From Herbidospora galbida (lineage in GTDB: Bacteria > Actinomycetota > Actinomycetes > Streptosporangiales > Streptosporangiaceae): a DNA stretch of 64,000 nt. This document shows positions 34-5,678 of the stretch, one piece after another (positions within the stretch are counted from its first letter, which is position 1; each line of letters begins with the position of its first letter). The stretch is from the NCBI RefSeq assembly GCF_005233835.1, contig NZ_SZQA01000001.1, positions 310,001 to 374,000 of the forward strand. Reading direction: 5' to 3'. The notes beneath the pieces were generated by a model, which worked only from the letters and a program-made list of their open reading frames with translations, was not told the DNA's origin and did no database searches. The position numbers and the translations under genes were made by a program.

Positions 34-1989
34 GTGGCGCATTCCACCATGAGCATCCGCATTGCGCCCCTGCAACTCGGGGAGCGCTTCGAGACCGATC
101 AGATCTTTCAACTGTGTAAGTCCCACAGCCAGGCGGATACCGGCGAGGTGGTGAAACTGCAGTCGCTTCTGCCGCCGCGGATCGACGGGCCGATGTGCAA
201 GACCGCGCAGAAGCTGACACTGAGCAGGCTCAAGCCGGCGGCGACGGTCATCTTGATGGCCAACGGCACCGAGATCGGCCGCTGGCAAGCAGGCGCTGCC
301 AGCATGCCCGTGGACATCGCCCTCCCCGCCGGCGCGACGCTCACCGCGCGGCAAGAACTCTGCGGCATCGTCAGCCCGGTGTCACGTGGTCGTCGGGTGA
401 CTTTCGCGGGTGGACGCTGGTTCCGGGTAGAGGACGAAAAGGGCAAGGATCTGCTCGCCAAGTCCTTCGCCATTCACGTCGCGCTGACCAATACCGGCAA
501 GATCGTGATCTTCAGTGGTGACAAGCACAGCAAGCCCACTGACCTCCAAGACGTCAACCAATGCGAGCTGTTCGACTGTGCGTCCCTGACCCTGAAGAAG
601 ATCGACGCCCCCACATCAGATGTCTTCTGCTCGGGACACGCCTTCCTGTCCGATGGACGTCTGCTCGTCGCCGGTGGTACGGAGAGCTGGCCGACGGACA
701 GCCCCGACCCGCACGGCGGTCATTTCGGCGGTCTGAAGGACGCGTGGATGTTCAACCCGCGGCCGGGCGAGGGGAAGCCGCACTGGAGCCGGGAGCAACC
801 CATGAAGGGCGGCCGGTGGTATCCGACGCTGCTCACCCTGCACAACGGAATCGTTCTCGCGCTGTCCGGGCATCCGGATGACGCCGACGCAGTCCGCCAC
901 CAGAACAACACGATGGAGGTATGGGCAGGCGACGGCTGGACGCAACTGGGTGACACAGACGCCATCGACATCCGGCGTGAGCCGCCCGCCGCCGTCCCGC
1001 CGCTCGCCGGCTATCTCTACCCGCGCATCTTCAGCGGCCCCCGCGGAGAGGTGTTCAGTGCGACTCCCATCGCCGCCGAACTGTCAGATCCACCCCAATT
1101 GCCGCGTGCGAGCGCGAGCTGGGCAGGCCCCGCCGCAGGCGTCAACTGGACGCGCAACTCCCGGCCCCCCGCGGGCATCCCCAGATGGGACGCCTACGAG
1201 GGCTTCAACATGCCCGCCACGCTACTGCCGCTGCTGGAGGAGGAGGGGTTTCGGTTCCAGGTGCTGCTGGCGGGCGGTGCAGGTCGGACCTCCGGCTGGA
1301 CCATCGATCTCGGCACGCCGGCCGCGCCCGTCTCCGCCCCGCAGTGGACAGTACTGGGCCCGCGTGGCCAGTCGAACGCGCGGGCGCGCTTCAACAGCAA
1401 CCTGGTGCTGCTGCCCAGCGGCGAGGTGCTCCTCTGCAACGGGGTGGAGGACGGCGCGGACGACGACACGGCTGTTCTTGAGCCGGAGATCCTCAAAAAC
1501 GTCGGCGCCGGCTGGGAATGGGACCAGAACGCCTTCCCGAGAGCGGGCGTCCCGCGCAACTACCACTCGACCGCGCTTCTGATGCCCGACGGCCGGGTGT
1601 TCACCGGTGGCGGCAACATCGACGCCAAGCCCGGCGGCCAGGAAGTGCGCCGTCTGAACCTGGAGATCTACGAACCCTGGTACGTCTGCCGGAACCGGCC
1701 ACGCCTCCTCAATGTGCCTGACAGGGTGTCCAACGGCCAGACGCTCAACGTCGATGTACGCGGTGTGGAACCGATCGACCGCCTCGCGCTCGTTCGGTGC
1801 GGCAGTGCGACCCACGCCTTCAATTCTGACCAGCGTTACATCGGCCTGATCGCTCATGAGGTGGAACCCGGCCGCTACTCCGTCAAGATTCCGTCCACCG
1901 TCGTCGCCGTCCCCGGCTATTACCTGTTGTACGCGTGTACGCAGGACAGGGTGCCGTCCAAAGGGGTGTTCATCCGCATCGGCCGGTGA
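34..1989 (+). CDS. Copper-radical oxidase, galactose/glyoxal oxidase family (possibly 5'-partial)
   Basis: Seven-bladed kelch-type oxidase with a C-terminal immunoglobulin-like (DUF1929) domain. The family oxidises alcohols or aldehydes to aldehydes or acids with release of H2O2, using one copper and a Cys-Tyr cross-link. Numbering from the GTG at 34, all key residues can be placed: Cys199 (FCSGH) and Tyr263 (RWYPT) for the cross-link, axial Tyr510 and ligand His511 (NYHST), and ligand His594 (THAFN). Blade motifs such as DGRLLVAGG and DGRVFTGGG recur. No signal peptide is visible. The frame is open to the window edge, so the true start may lie upstream; an internal ATG is at 49. Family assignment is firm; the substrate cannot be read from the sequence. 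The next gene on the same strand starts 192 bases downstream. Confidence 0.85.
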   Translation: MAHSTMSIRIAPLQLGERFETDQIFQLCKSHSQADTGEVVKLQSLLPPRIDGPMCKTAQKLTLSRLKPAATVILMANGTEIGRWQAGAASMPVDIALPAGATLTARQELCGIVSPVSRGRRVTFAGGRWFRVEDEKGKDLLAKSFAIHVALTNTGKIVIFSGDKHSKPTDLQDVNQCELFDCASLTLKKIDAPTSDVFCSGHAFLSDGRLLVAGGTESWPTDSPDPHGGHFGGLKDAWMFNPRPGEGKPHWSREQPMKGGRWYPTLLTLHNGIVLALSGHPDDADAVRHQNNTMEVWAGDGWTQLGDTDAIDIRREPPAAVPPLAGYLYPRIFSGPRGEVFSATPIAAELSDPPQLPRASASWAGPAAGVNWTRNSRPPAGIPRWDAYEGFNMPATLLPLLEEEGFRFQVLLAGGAGRTSGWTIDLGTPAAPVSAPQWTVLGPRGQSNARARFNSNLVLLPSGEVLLCNGVEDGADDDTAVLEPEILKNVGAGWEWDQNAFPRAGVPRNYHSTALLMPDGRVFTGGGNIDAKPGGQEVRRLNLEIYEPWYVCRNRPRLLNVPDRVSNGQTLNVDVRGVEPIDRLALVRCGSATHAFNSDQRYIGLIAHEVEPGRYSVKIPSTVVAVPGYYLLYACTQDRVPSKGVFIRIGR

Positions 1990-2169
1990 CGACTACGCGC
2001 CTCCAAGACGCACATGGCGGACCTGAGTCAATATCTGTGCGGAGCCGTCACCGGCGCCGGTCATGCTGGCGTGCATTTCCGCCGGAATTCGGTTGGCAAT
2101 GTCGCGGACGGCCACAGATTTGTGATCTTCCAAGGGTGTGGGGGCGCCCTTAGCGTGGGGCGAGCCGCG

Positions 2170-2176
2170 AAAGGAG
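2170..2176 (+). promoter_or_regulatory. Ribosome binding site of the ADF-H gene
   Basis: AAAGGAG five bases before the ATG at 2182. It decides the start against an in-frame ATG at 2014, whose extra 56 residues look non-coding and unlike the ADF-H fold. Confidence 0.7.
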
Positions 2177-2181
2177 ATGGC

Positions 2182-3210
2182 ATGTCCCAGAACCTTGATC
2201 TCGCCGCCGAAGTGATGTCCGCGTACTCCGACATGGTCGACGACCGAAGCGTCGACTATGTGATCTACAAGATCGACGACGACGGTTCGACGATCGTCCC
2301 GGAAAAGAGCGGTGACGGCTACGACGATTTCCTCGCGAGCCTGCCGGCCGACGAATGCCGGTGGGGCCTGTGTGAAATGGACCTCGGCTCCTACGGCGCC
2401 CTGTGCAGTTTCGAGCCCGTCTTCTTCACCTGGCTGCCCCCCGCCGCACCCGAAGCGCAGAGAGCGCTGTACGAACGGTCCAGTGGCCTGCTCTCGCAAG
2501 AATTCGACGTCGTGGTCGTCTCCACCACGGTCTCCGGGCCCGCCGAGGCGTCCCATGAGGCGCTGGTGAACCGGCTGGCGGCGGCAGGTCACCCGCGCCA
2601 CCTGGAGCTGCCGGATCACGACATCTCCATCGGCCGGTTCGCCGGGAAGGCGCAGGAGCTGCTCTTCGAGCTCCGGAGCAACGACGAAAACGAGAGGGAT
2701 ACCTACGGGCACGTCATTTTCAAGCTCAATCGTCTTTTCATGCACGATGTGGCACAGACCGGCGATCTCGCGGTGGCCCACGACGAGTTCCTCGCGGGAC
2801 TTCCGGCCGACGAATGCCGCTGGGTCCTTTACACCCTGGACATCAGTTCGCTGACCTCGGAGCACGAACCCACCTACACCTTCTTCTTCACGTGGATTCC
2901 CCGGGTCGCTCCAGAGCGCAACCGGAACCTCTTCTACCTCGGAGGCGACGGCACCGCCATGGGGGCCTACGAGACGCGGTTCACCCCGACGGGAATGCTG
3001 GCGGACAAGGTCGAGGAGATCGCCGAGTGTTTCATGGGTGACGTCTCCGGCCTTTCCGAGGTGTCCTACGAGAGGCTGTGGGAAATGGCCCGCCGCCGCT
3101 TCAAGCGCGCCGAGGCGGAGAAACAGGAAGACGAAGAAGCCGACCGGCGGCTGCGGCAGGAGGACGCGATCATCCAGGGTGAGGTGGCGGAAGGGGGGCT
3201 CTACCGCTGA
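2182..3210 (+). CDS. Tandem ADF-H (actin-depolymerising factor/cofilin-like) protein
   Basis: The 342-residue protein starts at an ATG behind AAAGGAG (2170-2176); an upstream in-frame ATG at 2014 lacks a ribosome binding site. Two ADF-H domains are seen. Domain 1 is about residues 8-132, with YVIYKIDDDG, then YDDFLASLPADECRW (47-61), then FFTWLPPAAP and a long helix with ALYERSS. Domain 2 is about 155-306, repeating HVIFKLN, DEFLAGLPADECRWVLY (201-217) and FFFTWIPRVAP. The order and wording match plant ADF and twinfilin. A charged, probably helical tail (307-342) follows. In eukaryotes the fold binds and severs actin. The basic pair on the actin-binding helix is only partly kept (Arg94 in domain 1). 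There is no signal peptide, transmembrane segment or actin-like neighbour. Homology is well supported; function in a bacterium is unknown. Confidence 0.8.
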   Translation: MSQNLDLAAEVMSAYSDMVDDRSVDYVIYKIDDDGSTIVPEKSGDGYDDFLASLPADECRWGLCEMDLGSYGALCSFEPVFFTWLPPAAPEAQRALYERSSGLLSQEFDVVVVSTTVSGPAEASHEALVNRLAAAGHPRHLELPDHDISIGRFAGKAQELLFELRSNDENERDTYGHVIFKLNRLFMHDVAQTGDLAVAHDEFLAGLPADECRWVLYTLDISSLTSEHEPTYTFFFTWIPRVAPERNRNLFYLGGDGTAMGAYETRFTPTGMLADKVEEIAECFMGDVSGLSEVSYERLWEMARRRFKRAEAEKQEDEEADRRLRQEDAIIQGEVAEGGLYR

Positions 3211-3365
3211 AGGTCCGCTCGAACGCGTCGAGGCCGTCCTCCTCGACGTCGGTGACGGCACATGACCAGGGTCGCCGAAGTCGTGACGTCACCATGACCG
3301 GCGGCACTTATCCGGAAAAGTCACCGCTCCTACCGTCGGAATCCCTTCGGTCAAGGAGTTCTCGC

Positions 3366-3941
3366 ATGCCCTCTCCCCTGCTTCGGTTCGGCGCCCTCTG
3401 CGGCGTCGTCATGGGCCTGTCGGTCGGCGTCCCCGGCGCCGTCGAGGCGTTCACCGGCGAGACGACGGTCACCAGTCTCGTCATCGGTCTCGGGGTCGCC
3501 TTCGGGCCGCCCGCGCTCACGGCCTTCCACCTGCGGCAGAGCGAGGTCTCCGGGCGGTTCGGCGAGGTCGCGTACGCCGTCAACATGATCGGGCTCAGCC
3601 TCTTCGCCGGCATCGCCTTCGCGCTCAACCTGGTCGTCTTCTTCCTCGACGACGCGGTGACGCGGGAGTTGCTCCTGGGGCCGACGAAGATCGTCCTGCT
3701 GGGCGGGACGGCGGTGTTCGTGGTCGGCACGGTCCTGTTCTCGGTGGCGATGCTGCGGGCGGGCGTCTTCCCGCGGGTGCCCGCCGCCGGGTACGGCGTC
3801 ACGCTGACGGCGCTCGCGCTCGGCGCGTCGTTGCCGGACGGCGCGCTGACGAGCCTGCTGCACGTCCTGGTCGGCGCGACGCTCATCTGGTTGTCGCTGT
3901 CGGTGCGGAGATCAGTGCGGCCGTATGCGGACCGACCGTAG
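3366..3941 (+). CDS. Small integral membrane protein, unknown function
   Basis: The 191-residue protein starts at an ATG eight bases after AAGGAG (3352-3357); longer starts in the same frame lack a ribosome binding site. It has about six hydrophobic segments: residues near 5-25, 35-53, 65-92, 103-127, 138-152 and 158-176. Loops are short and the C-terminus is Arg-rich. No conserved motif is recognisable. Its end overlaps or closely precedes the sensor kinase gene, so it may be co-transcribed with the two-component pair and could be the membrane system that the pair senses or controls; that is inference from position only. Confidence 0.7.
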   Translation: MPSPLLRFGALCGVVMGLSVGVPGAVEAFTGETTVTSLVIGLGVAFGPPALTAFHLRQSEVSGRFGEVAYAVNMIGLSLFAGIAFALNLVVFFLDDAVTRELLLGPTKIVLLGGTAVFVVGTVLFSVAMLRAGVFPRVPAAGYGVTLTALALGASLPDGALTSLLHVLVGATLIWLSLSVRRSVRPYADRP

Positions 3942-5040
3942 TCTTTCGGGCATGGCCCTGTCTCGTCCGGTGCCGTGGGTGTCGCCGGTGCTCTACGGCG
4001 CGGTCCTCATCGCGGGTCTGTACGCCTGGCTGGCCGGGCTGGGCGACACCCGGCCGGTCCCGTTCGTGGCGGGGCTGGCGGCGCTGGCCGTCCTCGACCG
4101 GTTCGAGCGGCGGATCGATCCGGTGCTGCTGCTGGCCCTGCGGGTGGGGTTGTTCACGCTGGTCGCGTCGGCCGACGGAGCCGGGCTGTCGCGGGTGTTG
4201 TTCGTGCTGGTGCCGTTCACTGCGTACTTCGCGTTCGGGCGGACGGTCTCCGTGGCGCTCGCCGTGGGGTGCGTCGTGGTCTTCGCGGCGGCCGGCACGA
4301 TCCACGACCCGCACTGGCTCGCCGACGCCGGGCAGGTATCCGACCTGCTGATGTTCTGCGTGGGGCTGGTCCTCGCGGTGACCATGGCGGCGGTGGCGGC
4401 CGAGGAGCGCAGGGCACGGATGGAACTGGCCGCCTCGGCGGCGGCGGTCGCCGAACTGTCGGCCACGGCCGAGCGCAACCGGGTGGCCAGGGACATCCAC
4501 GACGATCTCGGGCACCACCTGACCGCGATCGTGGTGCTGCTGGAGAAGGCCACCGCGTTCCGTGACCTCGACGCCGGGGCGGCCGACCGGGCGGTCGCGG
4601 ACGCGCACGGCTCCGCGCGGCGGGCGCTGGAGGACGTGCGGCGCTCGGTACGCACCCTGCGCGAGTCCTTCAGCCTCGAAGAGGCCCTGTCCGCCCTGGT
4701 CGAAGGCCAGCCGGATGTGGTCCTGGAGTTCTCCGGCGAGGAGGGCGGCCATGATCCGGCGGCGTTGCGGGCCCTCTACCGGGCGGCACAGGAGGGCATC
4801 ACGAACGCCCGGCGGCACGCCCGCGCCACGCGCGTGTCGGTCGCCGCGTCGCTCGACCCGCGGGGCGCGGAGCTGGTGGTCAGTGACGACGGGCGGGGCT
4901 TCGCGCCCGAGAGCGAGGGGTACGGCCTGCTCGGCATGCGCGAACGGGTCGAGCTCGCCGGTGGCCGGGTCGACATCGGCAGCCCGCCCGGCGGGGGCAC
5001 CCGGCTGACCGTCACCATCCCCCGGAGGGCCGCGCCGTGA
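3925..5040 (+). CDS. NarL-family sensor histidine kinase
   Basis: Membrane sensor kinase of the HisKA_3 class. The N-terminal half has five to six transmembrane segments (about residues 18-155) with almost no extracellular domain, so it probably senses within the membrane. A short coiled stretch (158-185) leads to the dimerisation/phosphoacceptor motif ARDIHDDLGHH with His192. A HATPase domain follows, with the N box QEGITNARRHA and glycine boxes DDGRGF and GYGLLGMRERV. It phosphorylates the adjacent regulator, whose GTG start overlaps this stop in GTGA. The start is uncertain: ATG 3925 overlaps the upstream gene by 17 bases, ATG 3952 does not, and neither has a clear ribosome binding site. 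Confidence 0.9.
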   Translation: MRTDRSLSGMALSRPVPWVSPVLYGAVLIAGLYAWLAGLGDTRPVPFVAGLAALAVLDRFERRIDPVLLLALRVGLFTLVASADGAGLSRVLFVLVPFTAYFAFGRTVSVALAVGCVVVFAAAGTIHDPHWLADAGQVSDLLMFCVGLVLAVTMAAVAAEERRARMELAASAAAVAELSATAERNRVARDIHDDLGHHLTAIVVLLEKATAFRDLDAGAADRAVADAHGSARRALEDVRRSVRTLRESFSLEEALSALVEGQPDVVLEFSGEEGGHDPAALRALYRAAQEGITNARRHARATRVSVAASLDPRGAELVVSDDGRGFAPESEGYGLLGMRERVELAGGRVDIGSPPGGGTRLTVTIPRRAAP

Positions 5041-5678
5041 GCGACGAGCCGGTGCGGGTGCTGGTCGTCGACGACCAGGGGCTGATCAGGGAGGCCATCG
5101 CCTCGCTGCTCGGCGTGCAACCCGGCATCACCGTGGTCGGCACGGCGGCCGACGGCCACGAGGCGGTCGAGCAGGCGGTCGCCCTGCGGCCCGACATCGT
5201 GCTGATGGACGTGCGGATGCCGCGCATGGACGGGGTGCGCGCGGTCGCCGCGCTCCGCGAGAGCGCACCCGAGATCCGGGTGGTCATGCTGACGACGTTC
5301 GACGACGAGGAGTACGTCCTCCAGGCCCTCCGCGCAGGCGCCACCGGCTACCTGCTGAAAGACCTCCCGGCACGGGAACTGGCGGCGGCCGTGCGGCTCG
5401 CGCGCGCCGGGGTCACCCAGCTCGACCCGGCGGTCACCGCCCGCCTGGTGGCGACCGGCGGCGCCCGTGCCCCGGAGGCGCCGGTGCCGCTGACGGCGCG
5501 GGAGCTCGACGTGCTGCGGCTGGTGGCCGGCGGGGCGTCGAACCGGGAGATCGCCGACCGGCTCTACCTCAGCGAGGGCACGGTGAAGAATCACATCTCG
5601 CGCATCCTCCAGCGCCTCGGCCTGCGCGACCGCACCCAGGCGGCGGTCTACGCCCGCGACCACGGTCTGCTTCCCTAG
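5037..5678 (+). CDS. NarL/LuxR-family response regulator
   Basis: Partner of the preceding kinase. The receiver domain (about 5-120) has acidic residues at VVDD, phosphoacceptor Asp58 in VLMDVRMP, and the switch Lys in GYLLKD. A linker leads to a LuxR-type HTH (about 148-208) with LTARELDVLRLVAGGASNRE and GTVKNHISRIL. It starts at GTG 5037 overlapping the kinase stop, which implies translational coupling. Its stop shares the CTAG tetranucleotide at 5675-5678 with the stop of the convergent regulator gene. Targets are unknown; the adjacent membrane protein gene is the simplest candidate. Confidence 0.95.
   Translation: MSDEPVRVLVVDDQGLIREAIASLLGVQPGITVVGTAADGHEAVEQAVALRPDIVLMDVRMPRMDGVRAVAALRESAPEIRVVMLTTFDDEEYVLQALRAGATGYLLKDLPARELAAAVRLARAGVTQLDPAVTARLVATGGARAPEAPVPLTARELDVLRLVAGGASNREIADRLYLSEGTVKNHISRILQRLGLRDRTQAAVYARDHGLLP

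What the first reader, a model, noticed from the sequence alone, without database searches (positions are those of the whole stretch)
2182..3210. Bacterial twinfilin-like protein with two ADF/cofilin domains
The protein carries the ADF-H signature twice (YDDFLASLPADECRW... FFTWLPPAAP... LYERSS, and DEFLAGLPADECRWVLY... FFFTWIPRVAP). The similarity to plant ADF is far beyond chance, in a clearly bacterial genome with normal high-GC codon use and its own ribosome binding site. ADF-H proteins act on eukaryotic actin, and bacteria have only distant actin relatives. It may act on a bacterial actin-like filament, be delivered against predatory protists or hosts, or have a new role. No secretion signal is visible. 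A two-domain arrangement implies filament binding rather than monomer binding alone.
Basis: partly seen in the sequence, partly recalled or inferred. Interest (0 to 1): 0.92.

Follow-up and report, generated by a model that had tools for sequence, protein, structure and literature searches.

The report
Bacterial protein with two cofilin domains
A soil bacterium (Herbidospora) carries a real protein built from two cofilin-type domains, a kind normally used by complex cells to take actin filaments apart; single-domain bacterial cofilins were already known, but this doubled form has lost the usual filament-binding residues and its cell has no actin of the complex-cell type, so it has probably been put to another use.

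Summary
ORF 2182-3210(+), 342 aa, carries PF00241 twice (whole protein 2.7e-27; each half above Pfam's cut-off). A predicted model of the second half matches cofilin structures at Z 13-14. The genus is Herbidospora; the gene occurs twice here and once each in H. cretacea and H. solisilvae, with decayed pieces in three genomes and no other tandem form in 343 genomes of the family. Bacterial cofilins are not new: the closest solved structure is Streptomyces griseoflavus cofilin (5IVU), a 2009 paper listed a Streptomyces homologue, NCBI names Streptomyces genes 'cofilin family protein', and 17 of 393 Streptomyces-like genomes carry single-domain versions. New here is the tandem protein: most likely an internal duplication, with a conserved 16-residue insertion in the second actin-binding helix and a conserved charged tail. 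It is not twinfilin by sequence, and it does not imply filament binding: both halves have lost the F-actin-site basic residues, domain 1 has lost half of the G-actin site, and the genome's only actin-family hit is MreB. There is no secretion signal. Most likely an accessory, cytoplasmic, repurposed ADF-H binding protein; use against eukaryotic actin is the main rival.

The parts
2182..3210 (+). tandem ADF-H (cofilin-type) protein, 342 aa
   Evidence: PF00241 twice; four homologous copies in the genus
2215..2571 (+). domain 1 (aa 12-130), ADF-H; canonical F-actin-site residues and R96 lost; most constrained around beta3-beta4 (aa 54-80)
2596..3093 (+). domain 2 (aa 139-304), ADF-H fold end to end; Pfam core at 2698-2931
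2938..2994 (+). conserved stretch GGDGTAMGAYETRFTPTG (about aa 253-271) holding the roughly 16-residue insertion in the alpha3 (actin-binding) helix of domain 2
   Evidence: 13 of 19 positions invariant in four copies
3094..3207 (+). charged C-terminal tail (aa 305-342), predicted to continue the last helix, ending in the conserved (E/D)GG(L/I)Y
   Evidence: a similar end is kept in the G002 remnant
2119..2159 (+). promoter-like block TTTGTGATCTT...TTAGCGTGGG, found only upstream of the four full copies in seven Herbidospora genomes at up to 3 mismatches
2113..2124 (.). inverted repeat CACA-N4-TGTG conserved upstream of all four copies (operator-like; function inferred only)
2170..2176 (+). 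ribosome binding site AAAGGAG
34..1989 (+). neighbour in the same variable slot: galactose-oxidase-like protein (PF09118), absent from this place in the six other species
3252..5678 (+). right edge of the variable slot: from 3252 on, DNA syntenic in all seven Herbidospora genomes (86-96%), with a histidine kinase and a LuxR-type response regulator

Best explanation
The gene encodes a cytoplasmic accessory protein made of two ADF-H domains. SHOWN: both halves are ADF-H by sequence, domain 2 also by predicted fold; the gene belongs to a patchy set of actinomycete cofilin homologues; it is an orphan gene with its own conserved upstream block, present or decayed in a patchy way between Herbidospora species; it is under purifying selection. 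LIKELY: the ancestor came from eukaryotes by horizontal transfer and the tandem arose by internal duplication. INFERRED mechanism: it no longer severs or decorates actin filaments. It works as a two-headed protein-binding module: domain 2 keeps the basic pair at the start of helix alpha3 (the G-actin site of cofilin and of the twinfilin C-terminal domain) and, with the conserved inserted loop GDGTAMGAYE..F.PTG, forms the main binding face; domain 1 contributes a different face (conserved beta3-beta4 hairpin), and the charged tail ends in a docking-like motif. The partner is most likely a bacterial protein, not actin.
For: PF00241 in both halves; D2 model Z 13.6 to yeast cofilin over 130 residues. 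No eukaryote-like actin in the genome: the only PF00022 hit above cut-off is the MreB gene (28.4 bits as actin, 499.6 as MreB). F-actin-site residues R80/K82 lost in all eight Herbidospora domains, R96 lost in D1 (A/S), whereas S. griseoflavus cofilin keeps them all; D2 keeps K/R at 96 and R at 98. Constraint lies on D1 beta3-beta4 (21/27 invariant, p 0.0003), on the start of D2 alpha3 and on the insertion, not on D1 alpha3 (8/22). dN/dS 0.23-0.63 in both domains. No signal peptide. Streptomyces class-b relatives sit beside Ku, DNA ligase, PRC-barrel, Asp23, CBS and STAS genes, a cytoplasmic stress setting, and one is fused to a STAS domain.
Against: No partner is identified; no neighbour is shared between the four loci, so an intracellular partner is not indicated by context. 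D2's retention of the G-actin-site basic pair is what one would expect if it still bound actin monomers. Patchiness, two diverged copies in one genome and decay elsewhere also fit an arms-race gene. The stress-island setting is that of distant single-domain relatives, not of this gene. Actin-site residue roles were taken from general knowledge of yeast cofilin and mapped by alignment.
Confidence: 0.5

Rival explanations
1. Anti-eukaryote protein: it is released or delivered and binds actin monomers of amoebae, fungi or plants, as a monomer-sequestering rather than severing factor, with domain 2 as the active head.
For: Only eukaryotes have such actin and the genome has none. D2 keeps the G-site basic pair in all four copies. 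Patchy, multi-copy, fast-turnover genes in variable slots suit an interaction gene. The related S. griseoflavus cofilin keeps the whole actin-binding set.
Against: No signal peptide or hydrophobic N-terminus; contractile-sheath genes occur in the window's genome and G002 but in neither G003 nor G005, which carry the gene; F-site lost in both domains and an insertion in D2 alpha3.
Confidence: 0.28
2. It regulates the bacterium's own actin relative, MreB, as cofilin regulates actin.
For: The genome has one MreB; the ADF-H fold binds the actin cleft in eukaryotes (established knowledge).
Against: Four of seven Herbidospora genomes have no full-length copy, and over 95% of the Streptomyces-like genomes searched have no ADF, so any such role is dispensable; there is no linkage to mreB (contig C22 versus C1).
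Confidence: 0.1
3. A recently acquired gene on its way out, without a selected function.
For: Decayed pieces in G001, G002 and G005; GC3 0.82-0.86 against about 0.9 in many neighbours.
Against: Four intact 342-365 aa frames with dN/dS below 1 in both domains (0.23-0.29 between G003 and G005) and a conserved upstream block.
Confidence: 0.1

Closest known systems
Streptomyces griseoflavus cofilin (PDB 5IVU) and other single-domain Streptomyces 'cofilin family protein' genes
   Same: Actinomycete ADF-H proteins; 5IVU is the best solved-structure hit of domain 1 (8.1e-13; named); patchy accessory genes (17 of 393 genomes)
   Different: One domain; 5IVU keeps all canonical actin-binding residues mapped; no insertion, linker or tail
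Eukaryotic ADF/cofilin (yeast cofilin, actophorin, plant ADF1)
   Same: Fold and sequence signature in both halves
   Different: Here tandem; R80/K82 lost in both domains, R96 lost in D1, insertion in D2 alpha3; no actin in the cell
Twinfilin
   Same: Two ADF-H domains plus a C-terminal tail; about 340-350 aa
   Different: No twinfilin hit by sequence for the whole protein (E up to 1) or D2 (E up to 10); tandem most likely an independent duplication
Streptomyces class-b ADFs of arms and linear plasmids (GNLTHDEL motif)
   Same: Divergent bacterial ADF-H
   Different: Single domain, stress-island neighbours; separate clade (100/100)

Membership tests
ADF-H domain superfamily (PF00241) | Profile match above the curated cut-off | tested here: met
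   D1 73.3 bits, D2 26.2 bits, cut-off 22.4; whole protein 95.4 bits
ADF-H domain superfamily (PF00241) | ADF-H fold (alpha1-beta1-beta2-alpha2-beta3-beta4-alpha3-beta5-alpha4) | tested here: met
   D2 model pLDDT 74, order of elements as expected, Z 13.6 to yeast cofilin. The full-length model is poor (pLDDT 50) but D1 shows the same order and matches cofilins
Canonical ADF/cofilin (filament-severing) | F-actin-site basic residues (yeast R80, K82) | tested here: not met
   S/P and E/D/Y/F/L at these positions in all eight domains
Canonical ADF/cofilin (filament-severing) | G-actin-site basic pair on alpha3 (yeast R96, K98) | tested here: inconclusive
   D1: A or S, then R/K (lost at 96); D2: K/R and R (kept), but alpha3 carries an insertion
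Canonical ADF/cofilin (filament-severing) | Binds and depolymerises actin | not testable with these tools
   needs purified protein and actin
Twinfilin | Two ADF-H domains in tandem | tested here: met
Twinfilin | Domains more similar in sequence to twinfilin domains than to cofilin | tested here: not met
   Only cofilin/ADF and coactosin chains found by sequence, no twinfilin chain, although twinfilin chains of the same library are hit by L052
Twinfilin | Tail binding capping protein | not testable with these tools
   no capping-protein search was made; the tail is charged and ends in GG(L/I)Y
Secreted anti-eukaryote effector | N-terminal export signal | tested here: not met
   maximum 15-residue hydropathy in the N-terminal region 0.79; first helix of domain 1 starts at residue 7
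Secreted anti-eukaryote effector | Co-occurrence with a contractile injection system | tested here: not met
   PF04984 in G000 and G002 but not in G003 and G005; other secretion systems not tested
MreB regulator | Binds MreB | not testable with these tools
   MreB gene present in the genome, unlinked

The most novel reading that the evidence does not exclude
A eukaryote-derived cofilin was duplicated inside a bacterium into a two-headed protein that binds a bacterial (non-actin or actin-like) partner through a remodelled actin-binding helix: a bacterial invention made from a eukaryotic cytoskeletal part.
Probability: 0.4. Interest if true: 0.72.

Novelty: new variant of a known kind. Interest (0 to 1): 0.5.

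Why it matters
ADF/cofilin proteins are defined by actin. Finding them tandemly duplicated, remodelled and selected in a bacterium without eukaryote-type actin makes testable what the fold does when its partner is absent, and whether bacteria use a cofilin against eukaryotes. The wider set (single-domain cofilins in about 4% of Streptomyces-like genomes, some on linear plasmids among stress genes) appears unstudied: searches of the held papers found no functional study.

Tried and rejected
Twinfilin ancestry: no sequence support. Phage, plasmid or viral origin of the tandem gene: no match. Regulon from the upstream block: the block occurs only at the four copies. Conserved operon partner: none, the four loci share no ADF-linked neighbours. 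CIS-delivered effector: presence does not match. NCBIfam: no model for the family. First AlphaFold run with four sequences gave a poor model (pLDDT 50), so D2 was folded alone with a wider alignment. Single-origin test for bacterial ADFs: not resolved (AU p 0.186).

Full report
OBSERVATION. The ORF at 2182-3210(+) is real and complete: ATG, AAAGGAG ribosome binding site, 342 aa. Pfam-A finds one family, PF00241 Cofilin_ADF, in two stretches with 2.7e-27 for the whole protein. The genome-wide scan gives D1 8.8e-20 and D2 3.3e-5, both above the curated cut-off, and finds a second tandem gene in the same genome at C1:190644-191738 (57% identical). None of the 14 control genomes rings. Domain 2 alone finds ADF/cofilin chains in the PDB (4.7e-8).

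FOLD. With only the four Herbidospora sequences AlphaFold gave a weak full-length model (pLDDT 50), yet with the ADF-H order of helices and strands in D1, and Foldseek hits to actophorin and cofilin at 2e-8. Domain 2 folded alone with 23 sequences gave pLDDT 74, with 80-94 in much of the core, and the full ADF-H order; Foldseek 8.8e-8 and VIA Z 13.6 over 130 residues to yeast cofilin.

WHERE IT OCCURS. The genus is Herbidospora: G003 is H. cretacea NBRC 15474 and G005 H. solisilvae NEAU-GS84. Of seven species genomes three have full-length genes (this one two). G002 keeps a disrupted piece with part of D2, the insertion and the tail; G005 a second, decayed piece with the upstream block plus the first 21 codons of a window-type gene; G001 a 19-residue scrap. 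No tandem form is found in the other genera among 343 family genomes; PF00241 adds one divergent single-domain protein in another genus of the family (G073). No match in plasmids, phages or viral contigs. A 396-genome sample of the phylum gave only the window's genome.

IT IS NOT THE FIRST BACTERIAL COFILIN. Yutin et al. 2009 (PMC2651865) list for cofilin 'a homolog only in Streptomyces (112791749), probable HGT'. The best solved-structure match of the window protein, 5IVU, is 'Crystal Structure of Streptomyces griseoflavus Cofilin', released 2017. Annotated Streptomyces plasmids carry 'cofilin family protein'. In 393 genomes of a genus that is Streptomyces by inference, 17 carry 19 PF00241 places, each with a single domain. 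They fall into a cofilin-like class A (L050, L051, L053; L050 is 5.5e-40 to actophorin) and a divergent class B with the motif GNLTHDEL. In the held paper library no functional study was found.

ORIGIN. In a 24-row tree class A groups with yeast cofilins (95/94), class B is its own clade (100/100), and the Herbidospora D1 and D2 clades join each other (93/96), which favours internal duplication but is short of firm. Each domain forms one clade holding all four copies, so the tandem predates the split of the copies. One or several transfers from eukaryotes cannot be told apart (AU p 0.17-0.19). Only four eukaryotic sequences were used, so this is a sketch.

GENE SURROUNDINGS. The four full copies lie in four unrelated contexts with no shared neighbour linked to the gene. 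What they share is about 70-100 bp upstream, including TTTGTGATCTT-N20-TTAGCGTGGG, which occurs at exactly these four places in seven genomes at up to three mismatches; overlapping its start is CACA-N4-TGTG in all four. At the window locus the right flank from 3252 is syntenic in all seven species (86-96%); the left flank resumes about 5.5 kb upstream (checked in G002 and G004); between them is a variable slot holding here an SDR gene, a galactose-oxidase-like gene and the ADF gene. The gene thus behaves as an orphan accessory gene with its own promoter.

WHAT THE RESIDUES SAY. Mapping onto yeast cofilin (the residue roles are established knowledge, not tested here): the F-actin-site pair R80/K82 is absent from all eight Herbidospora domains; the G-actin-site pair R96/K98 is A-or-S then R-or-K in D1 and K-or-R then R in D2. 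S. griseoflavus cofilin keeps every one of these. D2's alpha3 helix carries a roughly 16-residue insertion within GGDGTAMGAYExxFxPTG, 13 of 19 positions of that stretch invariant. Invariant positions concentrate on D1 beta3-beta4 (21/27, p 0.0003) and on the D2 alpha2-beta3 stretch, alpha3 start and insertion, whereas D1's alpha3 is not conserved (8/22). So the conserved faces are not the canonical filament-binding ones; tandem ADF-H does not here imply filament binding.

SELECTION. Nei-Gojobori dN/dS is 0.33 for G003/G005 (D1 0.29, D2 0.23) and 0.45-0.57 between the more diverged copies: a maintained but fairly fast-evolving protein.

TARGET. The genome's only PF00022 hit above cut-off is its MreB (28.4 bits as actin, 499.6 as MreB). 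There is no signal peptide. A contractile sheath gene is present in this genome and G002 but in neither of the two other genomes with the gene. Class B relatives sit in Streptomyces arms or linear plasmids among Ku, ATP-dependent DNA ligase, isoamylase-early-set, PRC-barrel, Asp23, CBS and STAS genes, and one is fused to a STAS domain, which suggests that ADF-H has been absorbed into bacterial cytoplasmic settings at least once. I therefore favour a repurposed cytoplasmic two-headed binding protein (0.5), keep action on eukaryotic actin monomers as main rival (0.28), and MreB regulation (0.1) and decay (0.1) behind. The partner is not shown by anything here.

VERDICT. It is a new tandem variant of a known but little-studied bacterial branch of ADF/cofilin.

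Noticed in passing
L068:9758-10549:- (Streptomyces-like genome G911): One open reading frame joins a STAS domain (PF01740/PF13466) to an ADF-H domain (PF00241), a fusion of an anti-sigma-antagonist-type domain with a cofilin domain.
   Followed up: partly
L070-L073 (Streptomyces linear plasmids), also L061-L068: Class-b cofilin genes recur near isoamylase-early-set (AMPK1_CBM-like), Ku, ATP-dependent DNA ligase, PRC-barrel, Asp23/Gls24, CBS and STAS genes: a stress and end-joining island on arms and linear plasmids.
   Followed up: partly
G005:C26:231678-231843, G001:C32:166472-166534, G002:C9:327913-328011: Decayed pieces of the tandem gene in three Herbidospora genomes; the G005 piece keeps the upstream block and 21 codons.
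   Followed up: partly
window 2356-2406: Domain 1 has three invariant cysteines (C59, C64, C75) around the beta3-beta4 hairpin, two of them unusual for cofilins; a disulfide or metal site is conceivable but untested.
   Followed up: no
window 3094-3207: The C-terminal tail ends in a conserved (E/D)GG(L/I)Y, with a similar end even in the disrupted G002 copy (EVADGGVRN); meaning unknown.
   Followed up: no
window 34-1989: Galactose-oxidase-like gene in the same variable slot; two further partial matches (84-86%) lie at contig ends C69 and C49 of the same genome, perhaps one second copy split by the assembly.
   Followed up: no
L057 and L058 (G910:C9, about 71 kb apart): Two closely similar class-b cofilin genes on one contig of a Streptomyces-like genome.
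   Followed up: no
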